Origin: Asanoa hainanensis
GTDB lineage: Bacteria > Actinomycetota > Actinomycetes > Mycobacteriales > Micromonosporaceae
Length of the DNA: 64,000 bases
Direction: 5' to 3'
NCBI RefSeq assembly: GCF_900188485.1
Contig: NZ_FZPH01000001.1
Coordinates: forward strand, 496,001-560,000
Made by a program: the position numbers and the translations under genes. Shown piece by piece: positions 8,949 through 50,185 of this stretch (position 1 is its first letter; every line of letters starts with the position of its first letter). The notes beneath the pieces were generated by a model. That model searched no databases. It had not been told where the DNA came from and worked only from the letters and a program-made list of their open reading frames with translations.

Positions 8949-9019
8949 GGGAGCTTGCGACCGAATCATTTGGCTCAGTAGCCCGAGTCATGCCCGCGCG
9001 AAGCGCGGTGGGCGCATGA
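8945..9019 (+). CDS. 24-codon ORF inside an intercistronic palindromic element
   Basis: An ATG overlapping the iclR stop (ATGA, 8945-8948) opens a 24-codon frame beginning MRELATESFG whose TGA overlaps the ATG of the corrinoid protein gene (ATGA, 9016-9019). The frame therefore bridges the two genes with four-base overlaps at both ends and no untranslated bases. It may only be a way to carry ribosomes across a repeat element; the peptide has no recognisable domain. It resembles short elements placed just before gene starts in Micromonosporaceae, which I cannot confirm here. Confidence 0.4.
   Translation: MRELATESFGSVARVMPARSAVGA
8994..9008 (+). repeat. Short hairpin of the intercistronic element
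   Basis: CCGCGC-GAA-GCGCGG forms a perfect six-pair stem with a three-base loop, ending eight bases before the corrinoid protein ATG. The hairpin would sit in the ribosome-loading region, so it may tune expression of the downstream gene or be a dispersed REP-like sequence. Confidence 0.55.
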
Positions 9020-9681: not shown

Positions 9682-9695
9682 AGGGGTGTAGCGAC

Positions 9696-12953: not shown

Positions 12954-12969
12954 TGTGAAGGAGAGCTCC

Positions 12970-14100: not shown

Positions 14101-14106
14101 CCATCG

Positions 14107-29572: not shown

Positions 29573-29602
29573 GGTGCTCCTCTGATGATGGGGTGGGGGA
29601 TT

Positions 29603-32814: not shown

Positions 32815-32816
32815 GG

Positions 32817-37184: not shown

Positions 37185-38302
37185 GAGTCGGCCTGCTCAC
37201 CTATTCCACCCGCCCGCGCGGCGGCGTCGTACACACCCTGGCTGTCGCCGAGGCGCTCGCGGCAGCCGGGGTCGACGTCCACGTCTTCGGCCTTGGCACC
37301 CCCGGCGAGCAGTTCTTCCGCCCGACGACCGTGCCGTTCACGCTCTTCCCGGCACCGACGGACACGACGTCGCTCGAGGAGAAGGTCTTCGCGTCCATCG
37401 ACTCGCTCACCACCGGCCTGGCCGCGGTCGCGGACCGGTTCGACGTGCTGCACTCGCAGGACTGCATCTCGGCCCGCGCCGCAGCCCGAGTGCGGGACGC
37501 CGGAGCCGCGGTGACAGTCGTGCGGACCGTCCACCACGTTGACGACTTCACCACCCAGGCCCTGATCGACTGCCAGCGCAAGGCGATCGTCGAGCCCGAC
37601 CACGTCCTCGTCGTCAGCGACTACTGGCGGCGCCAGCTGCACGAGGAGTACGGCATCACCGCGCGGATCGTCCGCAATGGAGTCGACCCGGCCCGCTTCC
37701 TCCCGATCGAGCCGCAACGTGCGGCCGCGCTGCGCGCCACCCTCGGCGCCGACGACCGCTTCGTGTTCCTGACCGTCGGTGGCGTGGAGCCGCGCAAGGG
37801 CACGAAGACGCTGTTCGAGGCGCTGGACATCCTGCGCGACCGGGGCCGGCACCCGGTGCTGGCCGTCATCGGCGGCCACTCGTTCCGCGACTACGGGCAG
37901 TACGAGCGGGAGGCGATGGGGATGGTGTCCGCACTGGGCATCGACGTCGTCCGGCTGGGCACGCTCGCGGACGAGGAGGTGGCCGCCTGGTACCGCGGCG
38001 CCGACGCGCTCGCCTTCCCCTCCCTCAACGAGGGCTTCGGCCTGGCCGTGCTCGAAGCGCTCGCGGCGGACCTGCCGGTGGTCGCCAGCCGCCTGCCGGT
38101 GTTCCGCGAGTTCCTGGTCGACGAGCGGGACGCGCTGCTGCCGACGCCCGGCGACCCGTACGCCCTCGCGGACGCCCTGGAACGGGTCATGACCGACGCC
38201 ACGCTGCGCAAGACGTTGGTGGAAGGCGGGCGGGCGGTGGTGCCGTCGTTCACCTGGGCGGCCTCCGCCGCCCGCCACGTCGCGATCTACCAGTCCCTAT
38301 GA
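37181..38302 (+). CDS. GT4 glycosyltransferase, MSMEG_0565 family (Nit1C)
   Basis: The 373-residue protein is a GT-B glycosyltransferase with family GT4 features: GVVHTLAVAEALAAAG at the acceptor side and the donor-site glutamates in PSLNEGFGLAVLEALA (EX7E). GVEPRKGTKTLFEAL marks the hinge. The sequence fits the MSMEG_0565 subfamily that accompanies Nit1C genes. ATG 37181 overlaps the fdrA stop, tying the carbamoyl genes to the Nit1C set within one operon. The sugar donor and acceptor are unknown. The gene converges on the amidohydrolase with a six-base overlap. Confidence 0.83.
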   Translation: MRVGLLTYSTRPRGGVVHTLAVAEALAAAGVDVHVFGLGTPGEQFFRPTTVPFTLFPAPTDTTSLEEKVFASIDSLTTGLAAVADRFDVLHSQDCISARAAARVRDAGAAVTVVRTVHHVDDFTTQALIDCQRKAIVEPDHVLVVSDYWRRQLHEEYGITARIVRNGVDPARFLPIEPQRAAALRATLGADDRFVFLTVGGVEPRKGTKTLFEALDILRDRGRHPVLAVIGGHSFRDYGQYEREAMGMVSALGIDVVRLGTLADEEVAAWYRGADALAFPSLNEGFGLAVLEALAADLPVVASRLPVFREFLVDERDALLPTPGDPYALADALERVMTDATLRKTLVEGGRAVVPSFTWAASAARHVAIYQSL

Positions 38303-39154
38303 GCCGTAGAGCTCCTCGTAGTTGCGGTACAGGATCCGCTGCTTGAGCTCGTCGCTGACCGGCGCGCCCTGGATCTTCCAGTACTCGCCCCAGAAGTCGC
38401 TCCAGGGCTCGTCCGAGGCGAACAGCACCCGATCCGCGCCGACACCGCGCTTCTCGATCTCGGTCATCAGCCAGCGTGCCCCGAATCCGATGGTCCAGGT
38501 GGTGTCGCAGTAGACCCGGTAGCCCTGCTCGACCCAGTCCAGGAACCGCGGCACCAGCTTGATGTGCCCGCTCACGCCGCCACCGAAGTGCACCAGGTAG
38601 ATCTTGATGCGCTTGCCATACTGCTCGACCAGCGGGATGAAGTTGTTGATGTCCGACGCGCCGCCGGCACTGGTGTGGAAGTGGAACACCAGGTCGTGCC
38701 GCTCGGCCGCGGCGAAGCACGCCTCGGCGAGTTCGCGGGTGTCGTCGTCCCACGTGTTGGGGTCGGGGTTGCCGCCGAGCAGGAACGTGGTCTTCAGCGC
38801 GACGATCCCGGGCTCGCCCGCGTGCTTGAGCGTCTCGAGGGTCCGCTCCTTGTTCTGCGGCAGGATCGACACCCACAGGCCGCCGACGAGCCGGTCGTTC
38901 GCCGCCACCGTGTCGATGACCAGCGGGTTGAGCGAGAACGCCTGGTCCTGCACGGGGATGCCGTAGTTGGGCAGCACGAGCCCGCGCTCCACGCCCACGC
39001 CGTCGAGGTGCCGCAGGTAGTCCCGGCCGTCCGCGAACTCGTACACGGTCGGCTTGACCGGCTCCTTGAGGTCGTAGAACTTCCAGGCCTGCATCGCACC
39101 GATGTGGCTGTGCGCGTCGACCACCCGCCCGCGGACCTTGTCGGGCTGGGCCAT
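38297..39154 (-). CDS. Amidohydrolase-family (COG2159-type) protein in place of the nitrilase
   Basis: The 285-residue TIM-barrel metal-dependent hydrolase shows VVDAHSHIG (metal HxH, ~residue 14), VALKTTFLL, LVFHFHTSAGG, IYLVHFGGGV and RVLFASDEPWSDF (metal Asp). This is the amidohydrolase_2 pattern of decarboxylases and hydrolases. In described Nit1C clusters the hydrolytic enzyme is a nitrilase; none is visible in this window, so this protein may act instead on a C-N or carboxyl bond of the unknown substrate. The start shares one base with the preceding stop (TGATG). It ends the four-gene minus-strand operon. Confidence 0.75.
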   Translation of the reverse strand: MAQPDKVRGRVVDAHSHIGAMQAWKFYDLKEPVKPTVYEFADGRDYLRHLDGVGVERGLVLPNYGIPVQDQAFSLNPLVIDTVAANDRLVGGLWVSILPQNKERTLETLKHAGEPGIVALKTTFLLGGNPDPNTWDDDTRELAEACFAAAERHDLVFHFHTSAGGASDINNFIPLVEQYGKRIKIYLVHFGGGVSGHIKLVPRFLDWVEQGYRVYCDTTWTIGFGARWLMTEIEKRGVGADRVLFASDEPWSDFWGEYWKIQGAPVSDELKQRILYRNYEELYGS

Positions 39155-39642
39155 CAAACGGTCCAGGTGTTCATCTGGAAGGCGCCTTCCTTCCAGGCCG
39201 TGAGCGCCGAGTCCAGCACGTCGAGCGGGTTGAACGGGGTGATGCCCGGGATCAGGTCGTCCTCGCGGAACCCGTACAGCGCGCCCATCGCGAACCGGCA
39301 CGCGTAGATCGTCGCGCCTTCCTTGAGCAGCGTCTTGATCTGGTTGTTGATCGCCAGGTGGCCCGGGAACGCCTCCTGGCCGACGCCGGGGTAGCCGCGG
39401 GTGCCGGAGGCGAGCAGCACGCCCGGTCCATACAGGACGATGTTGACGTCGAAGCCCTTGCGGACGAGGCGGGTCGAGGTGAGCAGGTTGACCAGGGCGA
39501 CGGAGCCTTCGTACGGCACGGTGTGGATGAAGATGAACGCCTTCTGCCCGGGCTCGGCCTGGATGTCGGGGAACACCTTCTCTTCCGCGTTGTACAGTCG
39601 CTCGCCCTCGGCCGGCAGTTCGGTGGTGACGGTCTTCGGCAC
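39154..39642 (-). CDS. MSMEG_0572/Sll0783-family nitrogen-starvation protein
   Basis: The 162-residue protein belongs to the small conserved Nit1C family named after MSMEG_0572 and Sll0783. It looks like a DsrE-type alpha/beta fold: [37 protein letters not shown] and [16 protein letters not shown], the last with a Cys at the place where DsrE/TusD proteins have a sulfur- or ligand-binding Cys. Sll0783 is needed for nitrogen-starvation behaviour in Synechocystis, but no reaction is established. GTG 39642 follows GAGGAGG. The next gene overlaps it by one base. Confidence 0.83.
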
Positions 39643-39682: not shown

Positions 39683-39934
39683 TCAGACCGCGGGACCCTC
39701 GGGTCGGGTCGGCCGCGGCCATTGCTTGCGGTGGCTGCCGGGCATGGCCGTCATCACCGTGCGGCGCAGCGACCATGGCAGGAGCCGGTAGACGGGTACG
39801 AAGATCCGGGACCAGAAGAGCGACCCGCGGATCGGCGGCGGTGCCACCCCGTGCGCCCGGGCCACCCGGGCCTGGGCGTCCCGCAGCAGGTAGTGCTGCG
39901 CGTTCGCACGTAACCACTTCGTCGGCGACGCCAT
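39683..39934 (-). CDS. Unknown basic 83-residue protein
   Basis: I do not recognise this small protein. It is Arg-rich ([36 protein letters not shown]) with one amphipathic or membrane-touching segment around [19 protein letters not shown]. The ATG starts one base after the oxidoreductase stop (TGAGATG), so it is clearly part of the operon between the NAD(P)H oxidoreductase and the MSMEG_0572-family gene. It could anchor or stabilise a partner protein. Confidence 0.6.
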
Positions 39935-39935
39935 C

Positions 39936-41279
39936 TCACACCTGCTTGGCGGCGGTGGCGACACCGTCCTGGGCGGCCACGCTGATCGGCTCGTTGAGCG
40001 CGCCGATCGGAGGCGAGTAGACGTTCTCCATCGTGGCGAGGTCGTGCAGGGTGATTCCCTTGCGTACGCACACCGCGAGGAAGTCGGCCCGTTCCTTGAT
40101 GCCCTCACCGCCGACGAGCTGCGCACCGATCAACCGCAGCGTGCCGGGCTCGGCCAGGAGCTTGACCCGGACCTGTTTGACGTCCGGGTAGTAGCGGGCG
40201 CGGGAGATGCCGGTCGCGCGCCCGACCACGTGCGGGATGCCGAGCGCGGCGGCCGCGACCTCGCCGAGGGCCACCCCGCCGATCATCCACTTGCCCGCGA
40301 CCATGCCCCAGGGCACGTAGACGGGCTGGTAGCTGCGCTCGCCGCCGGCCGCATTGGTGCCGGCCACCTTGCCCTGGGCGTACGCGTGACTGCCGGTCAG
40401 CCCCTGCAACGGCAGCCCGCCCAGCCCGTGCGGGATCTCGCAGACGTCGCCGGCCGCCCACACGTGCGATGCGGAGGTGGCCATCCGGGCGTCCACGACG
40501 AGACCGCCGGTCGAGCCGGCCTTGAGCCCGGCCGCGAGGGCGAGCGCGTTGTTGGGCACCTTGTGCGTCGCGACGACCACCAGCTCGGCCGGGATCTCCC
40601 CGTCGGAGGTCTCCACGGCGCGCACCTGCCCGCCCCCGCCGACGAAGCCGCGCAGGGTGGTGTTCCAGTGCATCGTCACGCCCATCTCGGCCCACGACTC
40701 CTGCACCGGCCCGGCGACGTCGGGGTCGCACAGCTCGCCCAGCGCCCAGGGGTGGGGGTCGACGAGGTGGGTCTCGATGCCGCGGTGGGCGAGCGCGGTC
40801 ACCATCTCCAGGCCGAGCGGGGACGCCTCCACGACGACCGCCCGCTGGACGGAGTCGAGGACCTTGTCCCACTCCATCGCCGCGCGGATGTTCTTGACGT
40901 AGTAGAGACCGCCGAGATCGCCGCCGGGTACGCCGGGATCCTGGTAGTCGAAGCCCGTCGCGACGATCAGCTCGTCGTAGCTCGTCGTGCCCTCGCCCTC
41001 GACCTCGACCGTGCGGTTGGCCGGGTCGAACGAGCGCACCGTCGTCTCATAGTGGATGTCGATCCCGACGTTCTCGTACGTCTCCTTGGTGGCCAGGAAC
41101 AGCCGCTGGAAGTCCGGGATCTCCTTGCCGTGCACGTAGGGAATGCCGCACGGGCTGTAGCCGACGTCCTCGAAGCTCGTGTAGACGACGACGTCGTTCG
41201 ACGGATCGGCGGCCTTGGCCGCCCCTGCTGCTCCGATTCCGGCGGCACCGCCGCCGATGATGACCACCTTGCGCGCCAA
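39936..41279 (-). CDS. FAD-dependent pyridine nucleotide-disulfide oxidoreductase, CoA-disulfide reductase/NADH oxidase type
   Basis: The 447-residue flavoprotein contains VVIIGGGAAGIGAAG (FAD), VGYSPCGIPY with the single redox Cys (residue 44) of CoA-disulfide reductases and NADH oxidases, and HVWAAGDVCEI (second FAD motif). The usual second glycine-rich NAD(P) motif is altered: VVVEASPLGLEMV lacks GxGxxG, so NAD(P)H use is doubtful. I chose TTG 41279 because GGGAG lies eight bases upstream; GTG 41288 is an alternative with poor spacing. It faces the XRE-cupin regulator and leads the operon of unknown, MSMEG_0572 and amidohydrolase genes. Confidence 0.8.
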   Translation of the reverse strand: MARKVVIIGGGAAGIGAAGAAKAADPSNDVVVYTSFEDVGYSPCGIPYVHGKEIPDFQRLFLATKETYENVGIDIHYETTVRSFDPANRTVEVEGEGTTSYDELIVATGFDYQDPGVPGGDLGGLYYVKNIRAAMEWDKVLDSVQRAVVVEASPLGLEMVTALAHRGIETHLVDPHPWALGELCDPDVAGPVQESWAEMGVTMHWNTTLRGFVGGGGQVRAVETSDGEIPAELVVVATHKVPNNALALAAGLKAGSTGGLVVDARMATSASHVWAAGDVCEIPHGLGGLPLQGLTGSHAYAQGKVAGTNAAGGERSYQPVYVPWGMVAGKWMIGGVALGEVAAAALGIPHVVGRATGISRARYYPDVKQVRVKLLAEPGTLRLIGAQLVGGEGIKERADFLAVCVRKGITLHDLATMENVYSPPIGALNEPISVAAQDGVATAAKQV

Positions 41280-41318
41280 TGGACTCACTCCCGTGGCAGA
41301 ATGCGCGTACATCATGGA

Positions 41319-41358: not shown

Positions 41359-41388
41359 CAACAGGCACCGATGTGGAGGAGTTGCCCG

Positions 41389-42009
41389 ATGGCCGTCACC
41401 GACGCGCCCTCGCCGGCGCAGACCGACGAGTCCGGTCCTGACCAGGTCCGCGAGATCGTCAGTCTGATCGGTCCGAAGCTGCACGCCCTGCGCACGGCCC
41501 AGGGGCACTCGCTGCAGCAGTTGGCCGTGCTGAGCGACGTCTCGGCCGCGGCGATCCACAAGATCGAGCGCAACGGCATGGTTCCCACGATCACGACGCT
41601 GCTCAAGCTCGGCGTCGCGCTCGGCGTGCCGGTGAGCCACTTCGTCGAGGAGGACGAGCAGCCGAAGGAGCCCGTGCACTTCACGAAGGCCGACCGGCGC
41701 CCGACGGTCTACACGCCGCACGACGGCCTGGCCCTCGCCGGCATCACGGGGTCCTACCGGCAGTTCCAGACCGCCGCGGCGGTCGCGACCGTGACGCCCG
41801 GCGCGTCCAGCGGCGACAAGGCGATGGAGCACCCCGGCGAGGAGCTCGTCCACGTCGTCGAGGGCACGCTGACTTTCCGGGTCGGCGAGCGGTCCTACAC
41901 GCTGGACGCGGGCGACTCGTTGCACTTCAGCGGGCAGGTGCCGCACTACTGGACGAACGACACCGCCGTGCCGGCCCGGGCGATCTGGATGGCGCTACGC
42001 AACGGGTGA
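41389..42009 (+). CDS. XRE-cupin transcriptional regulator
   Basis: The 206-residue regulator has an N-terminal lambda-repressor-like helix-turn-helix (LHALRTAQGHSLQQLAVLSD, AAAIHKIERNGMVPTITTL) and a C-terminal cupin (EHPGEELVHVVEGTLTFRVG, LHFSGQVPHYWTND) that should bind a small ligand. Regulators of this type control catabolism of amino acids, polyamines and sulfonated or nitrogenous compounds. ATG 41389 follows TGGAGGA. It sits exactly between the Nit1C-like operon and the seven-gene lyase operon, its end overlapping osmC by 15 bp, so it is the best candidate regulator of both. Confidence 0.85.
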   Translation: MAVTDAPSPAQTDESGPDQVREIVSLIGPKLHALRTAQGHSLQQLAVLSDVSAAAIHKIERNGMVPTITTLLKLGVALGVPVSHFVEEDEQPKEPVHFTKADRRPTVYTPHDGLALAGITGSYRQFQTAAAVATVTPGASSGDKAMEHPGEELVHVVEGTLTFRVGERSYTLDAGDSLHFSGQVPHYWTNDTAVPARAIWMALRNG

Positions 42010-42399
42010 GCTGTGGTGGATCGTCACGCTCGGGCCCCGCCGCAGCGTGTTGGTCACGTAGCAGACCCGCTCCCCCGCCGCGATCAGCCGCTCGATCTCG
42101 GCGTCCGGCAGGTCGACGACCACCTCCAGGGCGATCTCGGCGAACGCCGGGCCGTCGTACGTGCCGGTCGCGTTGACCTCCAGCGGCGGGAGCGCGAGGC
42201 CGCGCTTGCGGGCGCTGTAGGCGATCGCCATCGCGAAGCAGGACGCGGCCGCGGTCAGCAGGTAGTCGGTCGGCTGTGGGCCGGTGCCGGTGCCGCCGGC
42301 CACGGTCTCGGGCTCGTCGACCCGCAGCGAGTAGGCACCGGCGGTCACGTCGACCTGGTAGCCGTCGACCAGCTTGGCGTGGACGCTGCGGGTGCTCAC
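41995..42399 (-). CDS. OsmC-family protein
   Basis: The 134-residue protein shows the OsmC/Ohr fold: GPQPTDYLLTAAASCFAMAIA with the conserved active-site Cys near residue 53, and a second partly conserved Cys in AAGERVCYVTNTLR near 112. OsmC and Ohr proteins reduce organic hydroperoxides using two cysteines. It is the last gene of the lyase operon (GTG overlaps the DUF1116 stop). A thiol-handling or peroxide-protective role for the pathway is inferred. Confidence 0.85.
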   Translation of the reverse strand: MSTRSVHAKLVDGYQVDVTAGAYSLRVDEPETVAGGTGTGPQPTDYLLTAAASCFAMAIAYSARKRGLALPPLEVNATGTYDGPAFAEIALEVVVDLPDAEIERLIAAGERVCYVTNTLRRGPSVTIHHSSPVA

Positions 42400-43772
42400 G
42401 AGGCCGCGCTCGCGAGCAGGGCCGCACGGAACACGGCCGGCGGCGCGGTCGCGACACCGGCACCCACCTGACCCAGCCCCGCGTGGGCGTGCAGGATGCC
42501 GGTGTTCACCTTGGGCGTCACCCCCGTCTCGACGACGCGGCGCACGTCGACGCCGAGCGGCGTACCCCGGAAGTCCATGGTGGGCAGTTTGAACCTCGTG
42601 CTCTCGGCCGCGCAGATCCGGCGCATCGACTCCGTCACCCGGGCCGCGTCGGCCATCGAGCCGCCCAGGAACGCCGCGACCGCCGGCGATCCCGCCGTCG
42701 CCGGGCCGCCCAGGCCGACCAGCTCCAGCACCGCGCTGTCGCCGATGTCCAGGCCGCCGTCCTCCGGGCCGTACCCGGGATGGAACAGGGCCTCCTCCAC
42801 CGGCGGCGCGGGGGCGACGAACCAGCGCGGCGAGCCGGGCAGCCGGATCCCGTAGGTCGTGCCGTTGCGGGCCATCGTCGTGACGATCGTGGCGCCCGCG
42901 ACCTGTTCCGCGGCCAGCGTGAGGGACTTGGCGGCGGCCATCGCCACCGTCAGGAAGAACAGATGGTTCGCCGAGAGGTACGCGCAGAACTCCTGCGTCG
43001 CGGGGTCGTCGCCCAGGGCCGGTACGGCCGGCAGCAGGGAGCGGAGCAGCAGGTTGGTCGACGCCTGGGTGCGCATGTGGACGTCGTCGCCCATCTGCAC
43101 GCCCTGCGCGGCCAGCCCGAGCACGTCGACCGGGCCGATGCTCGCCAGGATCCTGGCCAACCGCGGCCCGGCCACCTCGCGCAGGAAGACCAGGCGCTCG
43201 ACGGCCGCCGGCGTCTCGCGGCCCATCCAGGCGACGTCTCCGGCGCCCTGGCCGACCGGCGCGAACGCCCGCACCCCGCCGGCCGCGTTGTCGACCACCC
43301 AGACCGGCATGCTCGGGCCGAGCGCGGTGGCCATCGGCACCACGGTGGCATGGTCGTTGGCGGCGGCCAGGGTTATCCGGCCTGTCGCCAGCAACGCCTC
43401 CGCCTCGTCCACCTGCCGCGCCCACCCTTCGGCGACCGCCGCCGCCCGCATCGACCGCCGCAGTGGGTCGCACACGTCGTCCCAGGCGATCGGTGGGCCG
43501 GGATGCAGCAGGGTCCGGTCTGTCATGCCCGGCACGACGTCCCCGGCCCTACGCACGTCGACGACCACGGGTACGCCGGTGTCGAGCCGGCGCAGCACTT
43601 CGGCGTTCGCCGGGTCGATGTCGAGCGAGCGCAGCCCGTAGAGGTCGGTGAGGGCGCGCACGGCGACCGCATCACCGCCGGCCGGGGGCCGCCAGTCGAC
43701 GTGCACCACGGGGGCGCCCTGTGCCGCGACGGCCTCCGCGAGCCCGGACAGGCCGAGGTTCACCACGCTCAT
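42396..43772 (-). CDS. DUF1116 protein, AllG/YlbE-like carbamoyltransferase component
   Basis: The 458-residue protein is a DUF1116 member: SMPVWVVDNAAGGVRAFAP, GLAAQGVQMGDDVHMRTQAS, FFLTVAMAAAKSLTLAAEQV and GNTGILHAHAGLGQVGAG-like end (VNTGILHAHAGLGQVGAG). In E. coli the homologue forms the oxamate carbamoyltransferase with FdrA. Its partner FdrA is encoded 5 kb away on the other strand together with carbamate kinase, so the two operons probably act in one pathway that ends in carbamoyl phosphate. It overlaps the lyase gene upstream (ATGA) and osmC downstream (GTGA). Confidence 0.82.
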   Translation of the reverse strand: MSVVNLGLSGLAEAVAAQGAPVVHVDWRPPAGGDAVAVRALTDLYGLRSLDIDPANAEVLRRLDTGVPVVVDVRRAGDVVPGMTDRTLLHPGPPIAWDDVCDPLRRSMRAAAVAEGWARQVDEAEALLATGRITLAAANDHATVVPMATALGPSMPVWVVDNAAGGVRAFAPVGQGAGDVAWMGRETPAAVERLVFLREVAGPRLARILASIGPVDVLGLAAQGVQMGDDVHMRTQASTNLLLRSLLPAVPALGDDPATQEFCAYLSANHLFFLTVAMAAAKSLTLAAEQVAGATIVTTMARNGTTYGIRLPGSPRWFVAPAPPVEEALFHPGYGPEDGGLDIGDSAVLELVGLGGPATAGSPAVAAFLGGSMADAARVTESMRRICAAESTRFKLPTMDFRGTPLGVDVRRVVETGVTPKVNTGILHAHAGLGQVGAGVATAPPAVFRAALLASAAS

Positions 43773-45193
43773 CCGATCCTCCCGAGTTCGTGGGCGCGTT
43801 CCCGGACCGCGGTCTCGGCCGCCGCTATCCGGCGGCGGCTCCGCTCGACGCGCCGCTCCAGCTCTTCGGCGGCGGCGCGCACGCCGGCCACCATCGGCCC
43901 CATGGCGCTCGGCGCGGCGCCGCCGAGGGCCGTCCGCGACCGCACCAGGGTCGCCGGGTCGAGCGCCACCGCGAGCTCGGTCGCGTCGATCCGCCAGTCC
44001 TGACCCGTCACGTCGGACGCCGCCTTGGCCAGGCTGTCGGCGTCGAGCCCGGCCCGCACCGCGCGGGCGACGACCCGGTGCGCGGTGCGGTAGTCCACCG
44101 CGAAGCGCCGCATGAGCAGGTCCGCGAGGTCGGCCGCCGCGGTGACGCCGGAGTCCAGCGCCGCGCGCATCCGCTCGGGGCGGGCGGCCAGCGTGCGCAC
44201 CACCGCCGCGCTCAACCGGGTGACCCGGGCGGCCAGGTCGATCGCGCGCGGGAGCTCGCCGTACACGTAGATCAGGTTGTCGCTGCGGGCCGACGGGGTC
44301 TTCGCCACCGCAGCCTGCCCGGCCAGCCGTCCGAGCAGGACCCCCGCCGAGCCACGGACCACGGTCAACGCGTACGGGTTGCGCTTCTGCGGCATGAGAA
44401 TGCTGGGCCGGGTGTACGCGTCGGCGAGGTCGACGAAGTCGAACTCCGCGCTGGTGAAGATCTCCAGGTCCTCGGCGAGCTTGTCCTGGGTGAGCACGAG
44501 GCTGGTGGCCGTCGTGAGCAGGTGCAGGAACGGGTCGGTCTGCCACATCGCATCGCGGGTGTGCGTGATGGCCCGGTCGAAGCCCAGCGCGCGGGCGGAG
44601 CCCTCCCGGTCGGCCAGGATCGGCGACCCGTTGGCCGCCCCCGAGCCGGCCGGGCTCCCGTTGACGTGGCCGAGCTCGGCGAGCAGGCGGTCGGCGTCGC
44701 GCAGCACCGGGTCGGCGAACGACAGCAGGTAGTGGCCGAACGTCGTGGGCTGCGCCTGCTGGAGGTACGTGTAGTCGGGCATCAGCGTGTCGACGTGCCG
44801 CTCGGCCTGGTCGGCCAGGGCGGTGGCGAGCCCGGCGGCGCCGGCGACGAGGTCGAGCAGCTGCGCCCGCAGCGTGATCCGGAGCGCGATCCGGACGGCC
44901 TCGCGCCGGGTCCGGCCGGCCCGCAGCCAGCCGGCGTCGGCCCCGATGCGGGCCGTGAGGTGCCGTTCGCGGGAGTCGTAGAGCTCGCCGTGCCGGGGGT
45001 CGTAGTCGACGGCCGACATGTCGAGCAGGGCACCGATCAGCTTCCGGGCCGACTCGGCCGGCACGACGCCCCGGTCGGCGAGCTCGACGGCGTGGGCCAG
45101 GTCGGCCAGGTTCAGTGCGTCGTGCAGGACGGACGCGTCGGCGGTCTCCCACGCGTATCCCGCCGCGATCAACTCCTCGCCCGGGCCGGTCAT
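43769..45193 (-). CDS. Argininosuccinate-lyase-like enzyme, aspartase/fumarase superfamily
   Basis: The 474-residue protein has the superfamily signature with catalytic-loop Ser264 in SILMPQKRNP, plus DYTYLQQAQPTTFGHYLL and GSPAGSGAANGSPI, which are typical of argininosuccinate lyase-like proteins. Such enzymes cleave C-N bonds with release of fumarate or another unsaturated acid. The organism's housekeeping argH is expected in an arginine operon, so this copy probably acts on a different N-substituted amino acid, as EDDS lyase does. It overlaps the PLP gene and the DUF1116 gene by four bases each. Confidence 0.82.
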   Translation of the reverse strand: MTGPGEELIAAGYAWETADASVLHDALNLADLAHAVELADRGVVPAESARKLIGALLDMSAVDYDPRHGELYDSRERHLTARIGADAGWLRAGRTRREAVRIALRITLRAQLLDLVAGAAGLATALADQAERHVDTLMPDYTYLQQAQPTTFGHYLLSFADPVLRDADRLLAELGHVNGSPAGSGAANGSPILADREGSARALGFDRAITHTRDAMWQTDPFLHLLTTATSLVLTQDKLAEDLEIFTSAEFDFVDLADAYTRPSILMPQKRNPYALTVVRGSAGVLLGRLAGQAAVAKTPSARSDNLIYVYGELPRAIDLAARVTRLSAAVVRTLAARPERMRAALDSGVTAAADLADLLMRRFAVDYRTAHRVVARAVRAGLDADSLAKAASDVTGQDWRIDATELAVALDPATLVRSRTALGGAAPSAMGPMVAGVRAAAEELERRVERSRRRIAAAETAVRERAHELGRIG

Positions 45194-46086
45194 GGCTTCA
45201 ACGCCCAGGGCAGGCCGCCGGTGTGCCACAGGACGGCGGGGGCCTCGGTCGGCAGCGCGGCGAACATCTTCGCGCCGTAGGTGGGGTCGACCAGGATGCC
45301 CTCGGTGTCCAGCACCGTCCGCATCGCCCGCCGGTCGGCGTCGCTGACCTGGCCGAAGCCGGTCCCGGTCGCGTCGATCAGGTGCAGGTCGCGGGGATCG
45401 GGGGCGGGCGTGCCGGCGAGCGCCGCGCAGCGGGTGGCGAGGTCCAGGACCTCGGCGCGCATCCGGTCGGCCGGGCGGCTCACGGAGACGCCGTACGTCC
45501 GCCAGGACGCGCCGATCGCCGCCTGCCCGGCCAGGAAGCCGGCCAGGGAGGCGCCCGATCCGGTCGGGATCAGCACGGTGGCGTCGCCGGCGAGCTGGTC
45601 GGCGAGCTCCTCCGCCGCCGCCGCGAAGCCCAGCGCGCCGACGGGCGTCGCTCCGCCGCGCGGCACCGGATACGGGTCGCGGCCCTCGGCGCGGAGCTTG
45701 GCCGCGTGCTCGTCTACGAGCCGGTCGAGGTCGTCCCGGTCGGCGCCGGTGAAGAGCAGCCGGGCTCCGCTGCGACTGGCCAGCTCCACCGGGGTCGGCG
45801 CGCCCGCCACGAGGATGTCGCAGCGCAGCCCGCACACGCGGGCGGCCAGGGCGGCTGCGGCGATGAAGTTGGAGCTGGGCGCGCCGGCGGTGACCAGCGT
45901 GTCGGCGCCTCGGGCGAGCGCGTCGCCGAGCAGGAACTCCAGCGGCCTGGCCTTGTTGCCCGCGACGCCGAAGCCGGTGAGGTCGTCCCGCTTGAGGTGG
46001 AGCGGGCCGGTGCCGAGCTTTCTTTCCAGTGCGGGCAGCCGGTGTAGGGGCGTGGGCAGGACCGCGAGGCGACGGCGGGCTTTCAT
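45190..46086 (-). CDS. PLP enzyme of the D-cysteine desulfhydrase/ACC deaminase/cysteate sulfo-lyase group
   Basis: The 298-residue fold-type II PLP enzyme binds cofactor at Lys45 (GVAGNKARPLEFLL); APSSNFIAAAALAARV, LIPTGSGASLAGFL (phosphate loop) and VDPTYGAKMF match the family. Members deaminate D-cysteine, 1-aminocyclopropane carboxylate or L-cysteate (CuyA, releasing sulfite). It lies between the two lyase genes with ATGA overlaps at both ends. With a sulfite-using ComA-like enzyme in the same operon, a cysteate-type sulfo-lyase reaction deserves testing; 2,3-diaminopropionate cleavage is another option. Confidence 0.83.
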   Translation of the reverse strand: MKARRRLAVLPTPLHRLPALERKLGTGPLHLKRDDLTGFGVAGNKARPLEFLLGDALARGADTLVTAGAPSSNFIAAAALAARVCGLRCDILVAGAPTPVELASRSGARLLFTGADRDDLDRLVDEHAAKLRAEGRDPYPVPRGGATPVGALGFAAAAEELADQLAGDATVLIPTGSGASLAGFLAGQAAIGASWRTYGVSVSRPADRMRAEVLDLATRCAALAGTPAPDPRDLHLIDATGTGFGQVSDADRRAMRTVLDTEGILVDPTYGAKMFAALPTEAPAVLWHTGGLPWALKP

Positions 46087-47390
46087 TCCGGCGTCCCGCG
46101 GGCGACGATCGCGTCCACCATGGCGCCGGCGGTGGCGACGGCCGGCTCCCGGGTCCATTTCTCGTCCAGGTCGTGCTCCTTCAGCGCCTCGGCCAGGTCG
46201 CCGTCGGGGTTCGCGGACAGCGCGTCCTGGAGAAGTTGCTGGGCCCGGTGCTTGCCGTGCCGGCGGGACAGCTCGGCGAGGACGCGCTCGGAGGCCCAGC
46301 GTGGGCCGAGGTTGGCCCGCATCCGGTCGGGGTGGACGACCAGCCCGTCGACGAGGTCGGCAGCCAACGACGCCGCCGTGCCGGCCGCCAGCGCGACGTC
46401 CGGCAGCGCTGCCCATTCGGCCTTCCACGCCCGACCGTCGCGTTCGTGGCCGCTGACCATGCCCTCGGCCAGGATGCCGGCGTTGGCCCGGGCGAGCCGG
46501 GCGAGGGTGTCGAGGTGCTCGCTGAGCTCGGGGTTCCGCTTGTGCGGCATCGTGATGCTGCCGACCGTGTGTTGCGACGGGGCTTCGGACAGCTCGCCGA
46601 TCTCGGGGCGTTGCAGCTCGTACACCTCGTTGCCGATCCGGGCCAGGGTCCCGGCGACCAGGCTCAGGACGCTGCCGAACTCGGCGACGCGGTCCCGGGT
46701 GGACGTCCACGAGAGCCCGGGGTCTGCGAGCTTCAGCCGTTCGCAGAACAGCCGGCGCAGGGCGATGCCGTCCGGCTCGAAGAAGCCCAGCACGCCGACG
46801 GCGCCGGCGAGTTGACCGACCGACCAGCGGGCCGATCCCTCGGCGAGCCTGGCTAGGTGCCGGCCCAGCTCGTCGGCCCAGGTGGCGACCTTGAAGCCGA
46901 AGGTGATCGGGGCGCCGGGCTGGCCGTGGGTGCGGCCGGCCATGACGGTGTCGCGATGGGTCGCGGCGAGGCGCAGCAGCGTCGCGTGCGCGCGGCGCAG
47001 GTCGGCCCGCACGAGCGCGCCGACGTCGCGCATCACCAGGCCGAACCAGGTGTCCGTGAGGTCCTGGACGGTCGCGCCGTAGTACACGTACTCGCTGGCC
47101 GGCTCCGGAAGCCTGGTCTGGAGGGCCCGGATCAGGCCGAGCGTGGAGTGTCCCGTGCGCCGCGTCTCGGCCGCCACCAACTCGACGTCGAGTTGGTCCG
47201 CGCGGGCGTGCCGCGCGATCTGCTCCGCCGCCCGCCCAGGGATCAGTCCGACCTCCGCCTGGGCGGCGGCGAGCGCGACGAGGATGTCCAGCCAGGACTG
47301 GAGGCGGCGCGGCTCCTCGAAGATGTCGGCCAGCGCGGGCGTCCGCCAGAGGCGGGCGTACGCGCCGGACTCCGTCAGACGGGTCGCCAC
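46083..47390 (-). CDS. Adenylosuccinate-lyase/carboxymuconate-cycloisomerase-like enzyme
   Basis: The 435-residue protein is a second, different member of the aspartase/fumarase superfamily in this operon. Signature loop Ser278 in SITMPHKRNPELSEHL, with YVYYGATVQDLTDTW and RTHGQPGAPITFGFK, places it near PurB and 3-carboxymuconate cycloisomerase. GTG 47390 follows GGGAG at five bases and overlaps the unknown gene by 16 bp. Two lyases of this fold side by side suggest two successive eliminations, for example from a doubly N-substituted compound. The housekeeping purB is expected elsewhere. Confidence 0.82.
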   Translation of the reverse strand: MATRLTESGAYARLWRTPALADIFEEPRRLQSWLDILVALAAAQAEVGLIPGRAAEQIARHARADQLDVELVAAETRRTGHSTLGLIRALQTRLPEPASEYVYYGATVQDLTDTWFGLVMRDVGALVRADLRRAHATLLRLAATHRDTVMAGRTHGQPGAPITFGFKVATWADELGRHLARLAEGSARWSVGQLAGAVGVLGFFEPDGIALRRLFCERLKLADPGLSWTSTRDRVAEFGSVLSLVAGTLARIGNEVYELQRPEIGELSEAPSQHTVGSITMPHKRNPELSEHLDTLARLARANAGILAEGMVSGHERDGRAWKAEWAALPDVALAAGTAASLAADLVDGLVVHPDRMRANLGPRWASERVLAELSRRHGKHRAQQLLQDALSANPDGDLAEALKEHDLDEKWTREPAVATAGAMVDAIVARGTPE

Positions 47391-48277
47391 TGCGGCTCCC
47401 AGCGGCCGGCCACCTCGCGCAGGGCCTCGCCGACCTGGCCGAGCGAGGCGCCCCACGGCACGACGACGCGGTCGCCGTCGCGTTCGATCTTCTCCTCCAG
47501 CAGGCAGCACTTGGTCAGCACGGCGGTGCCGCGCTCGTGGGGCCGCTGCCGTGGGCACATGTCCACAGTGGGCGGCTGATCCCCGTAGAACCACTCGTGG
47601 ATGTCGCGCGAGCGGGCGCAGCCGAGTAGGGTCCAGTCCTGCCGGGGTGGGCGCTGGTCGAGGTAGGCGGTCTCGCTGAGGCCCACCGCGACGCCCGACC
47701 CGGCGCAGGGCAACAAATAGCGCTCCGTTTTCGCGCCGGCTGCGAGGTCGGCGAAGGACACCGTGTCGGCCGCCGGCAGGATCGGCGGCAGGTCCTCGGC
47801 CACGGCCAGCAGCCGGCGCACCTGGTCGAGCAGCTTCGCCGGCTCCGGCGGCAGCACCTCCTGGACGACCAGCCGCAGCGGTGCGGGGTTGACGATGAAG
47901 CTGACGTGCGCGTAGCGGCCCTGCACCACGACGGCGCGGGGCGTGCCCGGCACGGTCGCGGCGACCCGGGCCAGTTCGGACGGCACGGCGGTGTCGGCCT
48001 CGTCATCGACGACGTAGGCGCAGTCGGTCGCGAGCACGTCGACCTCGACGATCGGCGAGAAGAGCGGCTCGGTCGACGCCTTGTCGACGCGTAGCAGGAC
48101 GGTTTTGCCGGCCGGGTCGCGAGCCACGACGAAGCGGGTGCGCCGGTACGCCTCCCGGCCGAGGAAGTGGGCTCGGAGCTTCTCGTCGCCCAGGGCGAAC
48201 GGCAGGTGCGTGACCGCCACGCCGCGGTAGGCGCTGGGCACGACGTTGGTCCGCGACCGGAGGTCCGGACCGTTCAC
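47375..48277 (-). CDS. Unknown 300-residue cysteine-containing protein of the lyase operon
   Basis: I do not recognise this protein. It is soluble, with a beta-rich first half (VAVTHLPFALGDEKLRAHFL, RFVVARDPAGKTVLLRVDKA) and a C-terminal third holding cysteines and histidines (LLGCARSRDIHEWFYGD, DMCPRQRPHERG, LTKCCLLEEKIE) that could bind a metal. It is fixed between the ComA-like gene (GTGA overlap) and the adenylosuccinate-lyase-like gene (16-bp overlap), so it must act in the same pathway. It does not show the pattern expected of DUF2877, the missing third carbamoyltransferase subunit, although a distant replacement is possible. Confidence 0.65.
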   Translation of the reverse strand: MNGPDLRSRTNVVPSAYRGVAVTHLPFALGDEKLRAHFLGREAYRRTRFVVARDPAGKTVLLRVDKASTEPLFSPIVEVDVLATDCAYVVDDEADTAVPSELARVAATVPGTPRAVVVQGRYAHVSFIVNPAPLRLVVQEVLPPEPAKLLDQVRRLLAVAEDLPPILPAADTVSFADLAAGAKTERYLLPCAGSGVAVGLSETAYLDQRPPRQDWTLLGCARSRDIHEWFYGDQPPTVDMCPRQRPHERGTAVLTKCCLLEEKIERDGDRVVVPWGASLGQVGEALREVAGRWEPQWRPV

Positions 48278-49041
48278 AGAGGCCGGCCGAGCGAGAGCGG
48301 GGCGGTGTCGGCCCGCAGCCCGAGCCGCAGCGTGGTCAGCGGCAGCACCTCGGCGGGCGCGATGTTGCCGAGGTTGACGTCGGGGCCGAACCGGCTGATC
48401 AGCCACGCCTGCTGGTCCTTACGGGGCGCCTCGAAGAGCACCCGGTCGAGCCCGGCCGCGTCGACCGCGGCGTCGATGATGTCGGGCTTCGGGACGCCGG
48501 CGCTGTCGTAGATGCCGACGGTGCCGCTCTCCCGGCCCTCGGCGATGATCCAGGTCGCGCCGGCGGCCAGGTCTTCGGCGATCTCGTCGCGCCACTGCCT
48601 GCTCGACAGCACCACCGCCGCGTCCTTGACGCCCGTCTCGGCCAGCACGACGAACGTCTCCGCCGCGCTCTTGACCAGCTCGCGCTTGGCGTCGAGGGGC
48701 ATGTCGGCGACCCCGCGGGAGACCTCGACGGCGTCGAAGCCGCTGCGCCGTGCCCACTCCAGACACTGCTCGGCCCGGCCCTGCGACCAGGCGATCTCCA
48801 GCAGCGTGCCGCCCAGGCAGGACGCCACCTCGTGGTCCTTCAACACGGCGAGCTTGCGGTCCAACCCGCGGTCGACGTACGCGGTGCCCCAGCCGAACTT
48901 CCAGACGTCGACGTGCTCACCGACCGACTCGAGGATCTCGGTGGTGGCGGAAACCGGCAGGCCACGGTCGAGAACGTGGGTCAGCCCGGCGCGGCGCGGC
49001 TTCGTTGACCGCGGTGGCAGCGACAGGAACGACGGACCCAC
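48274..49041 (-). CDS. Phosphosulfolactate synthase-like (ComA family) protein
   Basis: The 255-residue protein fits the ComA TIM-barrel family, which adds sulfite to phosphoenolpyruvate to give phosphosulfolactate. Visible family features are KPRRAGLTHVLDRGLP, VWKFGWGTAYVDRGL, CLGGTLLEIAWSQGR, GFDAVEVSRGVADMP, IIAEGRESGTVGIYD and FGPDVNLGNIAPAEVLPL, all at the expected positions. GTG 49041 was chosen because a TAGCAT box lies seven bases upstream and no ribosome-binding site is present. It heads the seven-gene operon. ComB and ComC partners are absent, so the product may be used differently from coenzyme M synthesis, or a related carbon acid may replace sulfite. Confidence 0.82.
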   Translation of the reverse strand: MGPSFLSLPPRSTKPRRAGLTHVLDRGLPVSATTEILESVGEHVDVWKFGWGTAYVDRGLDRKLAVLKDHEVASCLGGTLLEIAWSQGRAEQCLEWARRSGFDAVEVSRGVADMPLDAKRELVKSAAETFVVLAETGVKDAAVVLSSRQWRDEIAEDLAAGATWIIAEGRESGTVGIYDSAGVPKPDIIDAAVDAAGLDRVLFEAPRKDQQAWLISRFGPDVNLGNIAPAEVLPLTTLRLGLRADTAPLSLGRPL

Positions 49042-49111: not shown

Positions 49112-50185
49112 ATGAACGATTCGTTGGACGAGGTCGTCGCCGCCGTGCGGAACAATCCGGCGGCCCAGGCCAAGCAGGCGATCCGGCTGGTCTCGGAGGT
49201 CCTCGGCGACCACAGCTGGGTCGCGGGTCCGGGTGACGACGGCGCCGCCCTGGACGCCGACGGCGGCACCGTCATCGCCTGCGGCGAGGCGCTGTTCCCG
49301 CCGTTCGTCCGGGCCGACCCCTACGGCGCGGGCATCGCCGCCGTGCTCGCCAACGTCAACGACGTGGCCGCCATGGGCGGCCTCCCCCTCGGCATCGTCG
49401 ACACGGTCGTCGGCGACGAGGCCACCGCCCGCCGCGCGCTCGAAGGCATGCGGTACGCCGCGGATCTCTACCGGGTGCCGATCGTCGGCGGCCACCTCAC
49501 GATCTCCGACGGTCCACCGGCGATCTCGGCGTTCGCGGTCGGCTCCGCGCGTGCCGTGCTGTCGACGACGCGGGTCCGGGCCGGTCAGGATCTCGTCGTC
49601 GCGGCCTGCCTGCAGGGGGTCATGCGCGCCGACTTCCCGTTCTTCCCGTCCTTCGAGGAACGCGGCAAGGACCTCGCCGACGACGTCCGGCTGCTGCACA
49701 CGATCGCCAACGCCGGCCACGCGGCGGCGGCCAAGGACATCAGCATGGCCGGGTTGGTCGGGTCGCTGGCGATGCTGCTGGAGTGGGGCGGCTTCGGCGC
49801 GACCGTCGACCTCGACGCCGTCCCGGCGCCGCCCGGCGTGGCGCTGTCGCGCTGGTGCACCTGCTTCCCGTGCTACGGCTTCCTGCTCACCTGCGAGCCC
49901 GCGACCACCGACGACTGCGTGCGGTCGTTCACCGCACGCGGGTTGGCGGCGGCCCGGGTGGGCGCCATCGACGCGACCGGCGTAATCGCGTTGCGGTCCG
50001 GCGACCGGGTGGTCGACGTGGCATCAGCGCCGGCCACGGGGCTGCGGCGGCCGTCGTCGACCGGCGCCAAACGGGCCCGCGCGAACCGGACGGTCTCGAC
50101 CACCACGGTCAACGACATGGCCACGCCGAGGCCGAGCAGCAGCCCGCGCAGTGGGTCACCCTCGAACGTCGTGCCGCCGAAGTAG
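49112..50185 (+). CDS. AIR-synthase-like protein, Sll0787 family (Nit1C), with abnormal C-terminus
   Basis: The 357-codon frame encodes a PurM/HypE-fold protein: WVAGPGDDGAAL (ATP/metal), VLANVNDVAAMGGLPLG, RVPIVGGHLTISDG and AAAKDISMAGLVGSLAML. It matches the AIRS-related member of Nit1C clusters, fused to the GNAT in mycobacteria but separate here. Homology appears to end near residue 305 (IALRSGDRVVDV); the last ~50 residues (ATGLRRPSSTGAKRARANR onward) are antisense to a DedA remnant, so the native stop has probably been lost. The ATG follows GAGG at six bases. It diverges from the lyase operon. Confidence 0.8.
   Translation: MNDSLDEVVAAVRNNPAAQAKQAIRLVSEVLGDHSWVAGPGDDGAALDADGGTVIACGEALFPPFVRADPYGAGIAAVLANVNDVAAMGGLPLGIVDTVVGDEATARRALEGMRYAADLYRVPIVGGHLTISDGPPAISAFAVGSARAVLSTTRVRAGQDLVVAACLQGVMRADFPFFPSFEERGKDLADDVRLLHTIANAGHAAAAKDISMAGLVGSLAMLLEWGGFGATVDLDAVPAPPGVALSRWCTCFPCYGFLLTCEPATTDDCVRSFTARGLAAARVGAIDATGVIALRSGDRVVDVASAPATGLRRPSSTGAKRARANRTVSTTTVNDMATPRPSSSPRSGSPSNVVPPK

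What the first reader, a model, noticed from the sequence alone, without database searches (positions are those of the whole stretch)
41995..49041. Seven-gene overlapping operon of unknown purpose, candidate new pathway
ComA-like, unknown Cys protein, adenylosuccinate-lyase-like, PLP desulfhydrase-like, argininosuccinate-lyase-like, DUF1116 and OsmC genes overlap at every junction, so they form one functional unit. I know no described pathway with this composition. Two C-N lyases and a beta-eliminating PLP enzyme point to stepwise dismantling of an N-substituted amino acid, with the carbamoyl module recovering energy.
Basis: partly seen in the sequence, partly recalled or inferred. Interest (0 to 1): 0.85.

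Follow-up and report, generated by a model that had tools for sequence, protein, structure and literature searches.

The report
Coenzyme M operon without epoxide pathway
An actinobacterium carries genes like those that bacteria use to make coenzyme M, but instead of the usual alkene-and-epoxide genes they sit among genes for scavenging organic nitrogen, which suggests an unrecognised job for this cofactor.

Summary
The seven overlapping genes are real (five 4-nt overlaps, one of 16 nt). Five are not an unknown pathway: they are homologues, in the order found on the Nocardioides JS614 epoxide plasmid, of the bacterial coenzyme M (CoM) set ComA-XcbA-XcbD-XcbE-XcbC. The others are AllG and OsmC. 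The two 'C-N lyases' group with XcbC and XcbD, so dismantling of an N-substituted amino acid is not supported.

What is new is the setting. The genome has no match to epoxyalkane:CoM transferase. The operon lies in an ~18-kb conserved locus with AllF and carbamate kinase, Nit1C-type nitrogen-starvation genes, a CoA-disulfide-reductase-like flavoprotein and, in relatives, AllH and nitrile hydratase. Of 80 XcbA loci (the best of 125, ranked by likeness to the window) 55, plus 6 on cut contigs, have this setting, 15 the epoxide setting, 4 neither, none both. In XcbA and XcbD trees the two settings form sister clades, plus a mixed deep group.

Best reading: CoM or a close analogue serves an organic-nitrogen (nitrile/ureide) pathway whose carbamoyl group yields ATP. 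Substrate and product are unproven; XcbE is divergent here and absent from five relatives' genomes; AllH is missing here.

The parts
48274..49041 (-). ComA/XcbB, phosphosulfolactate synthase homologue (start uncertain)
   Evidence: Pfam PF02679 268.8 bits; nearest solved 1u83 and 1qwg; 52% to JS614, 38% to Xanthobacter; TIGR03849 236.3 bits, below its archaeal cut-off of 280
47375..48277 (-). XcbA family (DUF7714), Cys-rich, role unproven
   Evidence: NF052538 338.5 bits vs cut-off 150; 42-45% to Xanthobacter and JS614; C191, C220, C241, C257, C258 invariant in 12 sequences; in 40 sequences C191, C241, C257 invariant, C220 and C258 nearly so; AF2 pLDDT 94.9, no Foldseek PDB match at E<=0.001
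46083..47390 (-). XcbD homologue (aspartase/fumarase superfamily)
   Evidence: NF052536 595 bits vs cut-off 600; inside a 100* XcbD clade apart from four other lyases
45190..46086 (-). XcbE homologue (PLP enzyme), divergent
   Evidence: best family NF052537 222 bits vs cut-off 450, next CuyA 185.7; the lysine of the GNK motif is kept
43769..45193 (-). XcbC homologue (phosphosulfolactate phospho-lyase type)
   Evidence: NF052535 444.6 bits vs cut-off 575; loop RPSILMPQKRNPY, close to that of JS614
42396..43772 (-). AllG, oxamate carbamoyltransferase-type subunit (old DUF1116)
   Evidence: PF06545 214.8 bits; residues 2-43 match the C-terminal end of the FdrA profile
41995..42399 (-). OsmC-like protein
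   Evidence: PF02566 68.9 bits; below the cut-offs of the five NCBIfam OsmC/Ohr-type families it hits
41383..42009 (+). XRE-cupin regulator, convergent with OsmC (start uncertain)
   Evidence: HTH_3 and Cupin_2; found in 27 of 61 nitrogen-class loci
39936..41315 (-). CoA-disulfide-reductase-like flavoprotein with SPCGIPY
   Evidence: TIGR03385 231 bits, below cut-off 578.8; 53-83% identity in nitrogen-class loci except L101, 48%
39683..39970 (-). small conserved ORF without family hit (called 'M0570' in my scripts from place and size only, recalled; start uncertain)
   Evidence: conserved in the window and 4 loci, 38 of 61 nitrogen-class loci; no hit (longer frame)
39154..39642 (-). MSMEG_0572/Sll0783 family nitrogen starvation protein (DsrE-like)
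   Evidence: TIGR04044 208 bits vs cut-off 109.85
38297..39154 (-). amidohydrolase (Amidohydro_2); nitrile hydratase stands here in the nearest relative
37181..38302 (+). MSMEG_0565 family glycosyltransferase
   Evidence: TIGR04047 371.4 bits vs cut-off 259.85
35703..37184 (+). FdrA/AllF-like
   Evidence: NF004760 379.7 bits vs cut-off 433
34849..35706 (+). carbamate kinase-like (AA_kinase; start uncertain, ORF from 34735)
   Evidence: PF00696 95.1 bits; TIGR00746 291.8 bits vs cut-off 358
32817..33944 (-). MSMEG_0568 family radical SAM protein
   Evidence: TIGR04043 373.5 bits vs cut-off 303.7
32335..32817 (-). MSMEG_0567/Sll0786 family N-acetyltransferase (start uncertain)
   Evidence: TIGR04045 100.1 bits vs cut-off 68.45
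49112..50185 (+). Sll0787-type AIR-synthase-like protein, divergent from ComA (start uncertain)
   Evidence: TIGR04049 259.2 bits vs cut-off 321.3 (scanned from 49127)

Best explanation
The operon makes coenzyme M (2-mercaptoethanesulfonate) or a very close analogue, for a nitrogen-scavenging pathway and not for epoxides. Inferred from homology: ComA adds sulfite to PEP, XcbC eliminates phosphate to give sulfoacrylate, and XcbD, XcbE and XcbA turn this into the thiol (the order and chemistry of these last steps are second-hand or recalled and were not tested). Inferred from gene context: the nitrogen-starvation (Nit1C-type) genes together with an amidohydrolase or nitrile hydratase process a nitrile- or ureide-type compound with the thiol's help. 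AllF/AllG(/AllH) phosphorolyse the resulting carbamoyl group to carbamoyl phosphate, and carbamate kinase makes ATP, NH3 and CO2. The CoA-disulfide-reductase-like flavoprotein and OsmC keep the thiol reduced. Shown here: the genes, their order, their conservation as a locus, and the lack of a match to the epoxide enzyme. Not shown: any product, substrate or activity.
For: Five homologues of the CoM set in the order of JS614, 38-52% identical to the Xanthobacter and JS614 proteins. XcbD rows form a 100* clade apart from four other lyases; within it the mostly actinobacterial epoxide and nitrogen classes are sister clades (99* each) and a group with Xanthobacter lies outside both, so epoxide users bracket the nitrogen class; the XcbA tree, midpoint-rooted, agrees (100*, 96*). 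XcbC loop kept in 61 of 61 nitrogen-class sequences. No EtnE match in the own genome. In 80 loci: no EtnE or XecA hit at all in 61 nitrogen-class loci; AllG, OsmC and the flavoprotein 0 of 15 epoxide-class. AllG at 55-64% identity in 12 of 14 nitrogen-class genomes whose locus did not show it (10 more such loci not asked), against 1 of 15 control genomes. Nitrile hydratase genes inside the locus of relatives.
Against: XcbE scores 222 against a cut-off of 450, XcbC 445 against 575, XcbD 595 against 600. Five nitrogen-class genomes have no real XcbE. AllH, one of the three genes of the E. coli enzyme (abstract of PMC11326118), is absent from this genome and was seen in only 27 of 61 nitrogen-class loci, many of them cut. 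Neither nitrile hydratase nor the amidohydrolase was seen in 41 of 61 loci (20 have one). No CoM-using enzyme was identified. The 80 loci are ranked by likeness to the window protein, which favours its class. Gene context alone cannot fix the substrate.
Confidence: 0.6

Rival explanations
1. The operon makes a sulfonated thiol or thioether other than CoM, for example a compound one step before or beside it, because the late enzymes have diverged.
For: XcbE of the window is far below its family cut-off and most nitrogen-class XcbE differ from epoxide-class XcbE in the alignment (20 sequences); XcbE is missing in G388, G323, G291, G366 and G451.
Against: ComA, XcbA, XcbD, XcbC and the order are kept; the lysine of the PLP motif is kept in 56 of 56 nitrogen-class XcbE (52 with NK, 4 with AK or SK); XcbE of the deep-branching L101 and L104 resembles that of Xanthobacter. 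In G613 a nitrogen-class locus lost XcbD and most of XcbA and XcbE while the genome holds an epoxide-class ComA, XcbA, D, E set and a second XcbC, which would fit a shared product but is a single MAG.
Confidence: 0.2
2. CoM serves as a general low-molecular-weight thiol buffer, like mycothiol, with OsmC and the flavoprotein as its redox partners, and the nitrogen genes are only neighbours.
For: OsmC in 30 of 32 and the flavoprotein in 27 of 32 nitrogen-class loci of at least 20 kb; a 2025 paper reports that more CoM protects a methanogen from oxidative stress (PMC12713407, search listing only).
Against: Nitrogen genes stay with the Xcb genes also in the deep-branching L101, titled Marinimicrobia; XcbA is rare (3 of 200 and 10 of 396 genomes, own included), unlike a general thiol.
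Confidence: 0.12
3. CoM is made for a natural product or modified small molecule.
For: In G070 an Xcb set lies beside AMP-binding/PCP, glycosyltransferase, methyltransferase and sugar aminotransferase genes; the window locus also has a glycosyltransferase and an N-acetyltransferase.
Against: AllF/G and a carbamate kinase-like gene point to catabolism; no NRPS or PKS domain turned up in the window frames scanned (not the whole window).
Confidence: 0.07
4. Stepwise dismantling of an N-substituted amino acid.
For: Two aspartase/fumarase-fold enzymes and a PLP enzyme.
Against: All three have Xcb families as best hits and lie beside ComA and XcbA homologues in the order of a CoM operon.
Confidence: 0.03

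Closest known systems
Bacterial CoM biosynthesis set (Xanthobacter Py2 xcb genes; Nocardioides JS614, Mycolicibacterium NBB4 plasmids)
   Same: ComA, XcbA, XcbD, XcbE, XcbC homologues; gene order identical to JS614
   Different: No epoxide enzyme in the locus, and no EtnE match in the genome; separate sister clade; AllG and OsmC overlap the operon; XcbC, XcbD and XcbE below the curated cut-offs
Nit1C nitrogen-starvation cluster (cyanide assimilation in Pseudomonas, PMC11049912, passages)
   Same: Radical SAM, N-acetyltransferase and AIR-synthase-like members as listed in that paper; MSMEG_0572 and MSMEG_0565 families also stand together in clusters without Xcb (L139, L140). That MSMEG_0572 is NitB is recalled
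   Different: No Nit6803-type nitrilase over cut-off in the genome; AllF/G, carbamate kinase-like and CoM genes added
AllFGHK oxamate carbamoyltransferase and carbamate kinase of E. coli (PMC11326118, abstract); also reported beside biuret genes in nitrifiers (PMC12625717, passages)
   Same: AllF-like, AllG and carbamate kinase-like proteins present
   Different: AllH absent here though present in relatives; AllF and kinase below NCBIfam cut-offs; allantoin genes were not searched for
Alkene/epoxide CoM pathway (EtnE/XecA, 2-KPCC)
   Same: Homologous CoM genes; in JS614 an FAD-dependent oxidoreductase about 30% identical to the window's also stands beside the Xcb genes
   Different: EtnE/XecA not hit in 61 of 61 nitrogen-class loci; 2-KPCC and CoA-transferase not hit at the thresholds used, though 2-KPCC gives weak 24-25% hits in three

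Membership tests
Bacterial CoM biosynthesis operon (Xcb) | ComA-family phosphosulfolactate synthase | tested here: met
   PF02679 268.8 bits, 52% to JS614; below the archaeal equivalog cut-off
Bacterial CoM biosynthesis operon (Xcb) | XcbA family protein | tested here: met
   NF052538 338.5 vs 150
Bacterial CoM biosynthesis operon (Xcb) | XcbC, XcbD, XcbE at NCBI's naming cut-offs | tested here: not met
   444.6/575, 595/600, 222/450; each is the best hit. I therefore file it as a sister variant, not as a proven member
Bacterial CoM biosynthesis operon (Xcb) | XcbD inside the clade of known CoM operons, apart from other lyases | tested here: met
   100* against four outgroup lyases; 51 hand-picked rows
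Bacterial CoM biosynthesis operon (Xcb) | gene order and contiguity | tested here: met
   same order as JS614; Xanthobacter has another order
Bacterial CoM biosynthesis operon (Xcb) | CoM is produced | not testable with these tools
   needs thiol LC-MS
Epoxide/alkene CoM pathway | epoxyalkane:CoM transferase in the genome | tested here: not met
   0 matches in G000 with JS614 EtnE at E<=0.001
Nit1C cluster | radical SAM, N-acetyltransferase, MSMEG_0572 and MSMEG_0565 families | tested here: met
   all over cut-off
Nit1C cluster | Nit6803-type nitrilase | tested here: not met
   best 50.8 vs cut-off 502.6
Nit1C cluster | MSMEG_0569 flavoprotein | not tested
   family not searched in the own genome; not among the 25 of 51 hits listed for the window flavoprotein
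Oxamate carbamoyltransferase AllFGH | AllG and AllF subunits | tested here: inconclusive
   AllG PF06545 over cut-off; FdrA/AllF 379.7 vs 433, below cut-off
Oxamate carbamoyltransferase AllFGH | AllH subunit | tested here: not met
   PF11392 0 matches in the genome
Argininosuccinate / adenylosuccinate lyase | ArgH or PurB equivalog cut-off | tested here: not met
   261.5 vs 279.5; 252 vs 326.2

The most novel reading that the evidence does not exclude
Coenzyme M is a dedicated carrier thiol in a widespread, undescribed pathway of organic-nitrogen assimilation. One concrete form: a cyano group is taken up on the thiol (CoM-S-CN), hydrated by nitrile hydratase or amidohydrolase to S-carbamoyl-CoM, and passed by AllF/G(/H) to phosphate, so that cyanide or nitrile nitrogen yields ammonia plus ATP. 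Among bacteria this use would be commoner than the epoxide use that defined bacterial CoM. The general statement carries the probability below; the S-cyano form alone I would put at about 0.07.
Probability: 0.4. Interest if true: 0.9.

Novelty: new variant of a known kind. Interest (0 to 1): 0.73.

Why it matters
Bacterial CoM is described as a cofactor of alkene and epoxide metabolism (PMC11507031, passages, says that CoM biosynthesis genes were found to date only in methanogens and aerobic alkene users). If the nitrogen-class loci make CoM, that view covers a minority of the loci sampled here. The locus also offers a natural setting, with neighbours, for cobalt-type nitrile hydratases, for an AllF/AllG pair in a new company, and for Nit1C-type genes of unclear chemistry. 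One deletion strain plus thiol LC-MS would test the core claim.

Tried and rejected
Ordinary epoxide-CoM system acting in trans: rejected for the own genome. For 30 nitrogen-class loci asked, 29 genomes were searched with EtnE (L030 not held) and 18 gave some match: one at 50% (Methylocystis, G605), three full-length at 34-35% (G637, G604, G597), the other 14 in pieces or weaker, at 23-48%. I read all but G605 as other methionine-synthase-like proteins; this was not tested. Nit6803 nitrilase route: not found. Viral relatives of XcbA: none. XcbA fold: confident model but no PDB match at E<=0.001, so no mechanism from structure. Idea that the locus holds the P. thermophila nitrile hydratase of the PDB: rejected, that protein is a different one. 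Idea that G613 has a single XcbC for both classes: rejected, it has two. Rows dropped or chosen: L063, L067 and L014 left out of the XcbA tree and motif counts as duplicates; 51 of the available XcbD rows were hand-picked. A Fisher test used 12 of 12 and left out G606-G608; I do not rely on it and give 12 of 14. Class labels come from the same neighbour genes that are then counted; a locus could have received both labels, and none did. Several motif patterns (OsmC, two of the XcbA ones) were badly chosen and are not used; the flavoprotein pattern SPCGIPY was found in 32 of 44, a looser one in 39 of 44.
Full report
OBSERVATION. The seven ORFs are where the finding puts them, all on the - strand, with overlaps of 4, 16, 4, 4, 4 and 4 nt. 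Pfam gives ComA, DUF7714, Lyase_1, PALP, Lyase_1 + ASL_C2, AllG (old DUF1116) and OsmC.

WHAT THE FIVE ARE. NCBIfam puts the Cys-rich protein in the XcbA family well over its cut-off (338.5 vs 150 bits). Three others have CoM-pathway families as best hits, and ComA the archaeal ComA model, all below the strict cut-offs: XcbD 595/600, XcbC 444.6/575, XcbE 222/450, ComA 236.3/280. A protein search of 72,556 plasmid records with the XcbA homologue matched 6 at E<=1e-5: Xanthobacter Py2, Nocardioides JS614, two of Mycolicibacterium chubuense NBB4 and two of Methylocystis iwaonis. In JS614 the order phosphosulfolactate synthase - hypothetical - adenylosuccinate-lyase-like - PLP enzyme - argininosuccinate-lyase-like is that of the window; Xanthobacter has another order. 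Identities to JS614 and Xanthobacter are 38-52%.

KNOWN BIOCHEMISTRY. PMC8727900 (passages) describes XcbB1 and XcbC1 as making phosphosulfolactate and sulfoacrylate, and notes a conserved 308-aa protein between xcbB1 and xcbE1 which it names xcbF1; by size and place this looks like the family NCBIfam calls XcbA. PMC11507031 (passages) uses XcbA for a sulfoacetaldehyde dehydrogenase function. I could not read the 2018 and 2022 primary papers, so the late steps are from recall and the names may not match. PMC12068725 (passages) says that the bacterial pathway is completely determined in Xanthobacter.

SAME ENZYMES? The XcbC loop R-x-S-[IV]-x-[MI]-P-x-K-[RK]-N-P-Y is in 61 of 61 nitrogen-class sequences examined and, with small changes, in JS614, NBB4 and Xanthobacter. 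The XcbD loop SI[TS]MPHKxNPE is in 64 of 67; L035 and L033 are cut or broken before or within the gene and the L072 match ends before the protein's end. ComA aligns with the solved enzymes 1u83 and 1qwg over nearly its whole length. XcbA has five cysteines invariant in 12 sequences of both classes; in 40, three are invariant and two nearly so. XcbE keeps the PLP-motif lysine in 56 of 56 nitrogen-class sequences but differs elsewhere.

NO EPOXIDE ENZYME. JS614 EtnE has no match at E<=0.001 in the window's genome. Among 29 nitrogen-class genomes searched 18 gave some match, but only Methylocystis G605 a clear one (50%); three others have full-length 34-35% matches.

THE LARGER LOCUS. Around the operon lie MSMEG_0568 radical SAM and MSMEG_0567 N-acetyltransferase families, a carbamate kinase-like gene, FdrA/AllF, an MSMEG_0565 glycosyltransferase, an amidohydrolase, MSMEG_0572, a small conserved ORF, a CoA-disulfide-reductase-like flavoprotein, an XRE-cupin regulator and an AIR-synthase-like gene. 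Radical SAM, N-acetyltransferase and AIR-synthase-like genes are listed for the nit1C cluster that Pseudomonas needs for cyanide assimilation (PMC11049912, passages); MSMEG_0572, MSMEG_0565 and these also stand together in clusters without Xcb in two other genomes of the family (L139, L140).

TWO CLASSES OF XCB LOCI. A pattern scan of 84,980 species genomes with an XcbA alignment found 125 relatives; the best 80, ranked by likeness to the window protein, were kept, which favours the window's class. By neighbours 55 are nitrogen-class, 6 more show one such gene on cut contigs, 15 are epoxide-class and 4 neither. EtnE or XecA at 44% or more: 10 of 15 epoxide-class; no hit at all in 61 nitrogen-class. 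AllG, OsmC, flavoprotein, MSMEG_0572, radical SAM, AIR-like: 0 of 15 epoxide-class; in the 32 nitrogen-class loci of at least 20 kb, OsmC 30, small ORF 28, flavoprotein 27, MSMEG_0572 26, AllG 23, AIR-like 23, radical SAM 14, AllF 14, carbamate kinase-like 13. No locus has both settings. A less biased sample: of 396 genomes of the phylum, 10 have XcbA, own included; of the other 9, 8 show nitrogen-class neighbours and G269 has a 73% EtnE elsewhere (its contig is too short to see neighbours). In the own family 3 of 200 have an XcbA match: own, Planosporangium, and G070 with neither setting; a fourth, G027, has the nitrogen-class locus cut by a contig end inside XcbC.

GENOME-WIDE CHECK OF ALLG. 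24 of 61 nitrogen-class loci did not show AllG; 14 of them were followed up in the whole genome: 12 have AllG at 55-64%, 2 deep-branch MAGs none; the deep-branch L101 genome has it at 39%, and G070 none. In 15 control genomes (13 of the 15 epoxide-class loci, G269, G070) 1 has it at 64% (G613), 4 have 40-48% homologues, 10 none. G613 carries a nitrogen-class locus in which XcbD and most of XcbA and XcbE are deleted, beside an epoxide-class ComA, XcbA, XcbD, XcbE set (L087) and a second XcbC. This would fit a shared product, but it is one MAG.

TREES. XcbA (91 rows, midpoint root): 16 epoxide-class rows with three unlabelled ones form one clade (100*), 65 nitrogen-class rows another (96*), and a deeper group mixes Xanthobacter and L098 (epoxide), L101, L104, L106 (nitrogen) and two unlabelled. 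XcbD (51 chosen rows, four outgroup lyases): all Xcb rows together 100*, the two main classes 99* each, the Xanthobacter group (with L098, L100, L101, L104) outside. Epoxide users thus lie on both sides of the nitrogen class, which argues that its ancestor made CoM; but nitrogen-class loci also lie on both sides. Support is SH-aLRT from short searches.

NITRILE HYDRATASE. Within fetched flanks alpha is in 9 and beta in 12 of 61 nitrogen-class loci and 0 of 15 epoxide-class. In 14 follow-up stretches alpha is present in 10. The motif is CTLCSC, which I recall as cobalt type; the best PDB relatives of the alpha chain include several labelled cobalt type. The window's genome was not searched for nitrile hydratase.

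MECHANISM. The simplest unit that fits is a thiol-assisted breakdown of a nitrile or ureide in which the carbamoyl group ends as carbamoyl phosphate and then ATP. The clusters without Xcb (L139, L140) carry nitrilase-superfamily hydrolases whose best or second-best model is N-carbamoylputrescine amidase, far below its cut-off (94-121 vs 410 bits), so AllF/G with carbamate kinase may be an energy-saving replacement. This is inference. Against it stand the missing AllH in this genome, the missing XcbE in five genomes and the lack of any identified CoM-using enzyme.

NOVELTY. The biosynthesis is known; the setting is, to my search, not described. Paper searches: (0 papers with three of six terms); some searches gave lists, most of them cut, in which no title or abstract start joins CoM to these nitrogen genes. 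PMC12625717 (passages) reports AllFGHK beside biuret genes in nitrifiers, and its CoM content was not checked. The library holds open-licence papers only, so absence there is weak. Because three enzymes miss NCBI's naming cut-offs, I file this as a new variant beside the CoM operon, not as a proven member.

Noticed in passing
L015 (G070) 48-16928: ComA-XcbA-XcbD-XcbE-XcbC (XcbA in two pieces) lies beside AMP-binding/PCP, glycosyltransferase, methyltransferase, amine oxidase and sugar aminotransferase genes: possibly CoM in a natural product cluster.
   Followed up: partly
L016, L019, L020, L021, L023 (G388, G323, G291, G366, G451): XcbD and XcbC are neighbours with no XcbE hit between them, and the genomes have no match to XcbE or only weak 29-32% ones.
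   Followed up: partly
L150 (G613) 7219-9730: Nitrogen-class locus with an internal deletion that removed XcbD and most of XcbA and XcbE, in a genome that also has epoxide-class Xcb genes.
   Followed up: partly
L042, L044-L047, L052, L054, L055, L059, L061, L070, L071, L073, L076, L089: Genes with Asn_synthase, AIRC and Ni_insertion domains (which I recall as LarE, LarB and LarC of nickel-pincer cofactor synthesis) stand beside OsmC and ComA in Pseudonocardiaceae loci.
   Followed up: no
L033, L034, L036, L037, L039, L040, L084: A NicO-type transporter gene sits inside the locus after AllH.
   Followed up: no
window 42396-43772 and 35703-37184: The first 43 residues of AllG match the C-terminal end of the FdrA profile, while the window FdrA matches it only to position 498 of 555: the end piece seems to have moved from AllF to AllG.
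   Followed up: no
L031, L032, L037, L084: Records titled Bifidobacterium breve MAG carry this locus; XcbA of L037 is nearly identical to that of an unnamed actinobacterial MAG, L036. The titles look wrong.
   Followed up: no
The XcbA profile rings weakly, under its cut-off, in Methanosarcina acetivorans among 14 control genomes.
   Followed up: no
window 26552-32059: ABC transporter genes with a sugar-type binding protein family and a GH97 glycosidase adjoin the locus and look unrelated.
   Followed up: no
window 25403-25494: ARAGORN reports a 92-nt tRNA-Ala with anticodon CGC, the only tRNA in the window.
   Followed up: no
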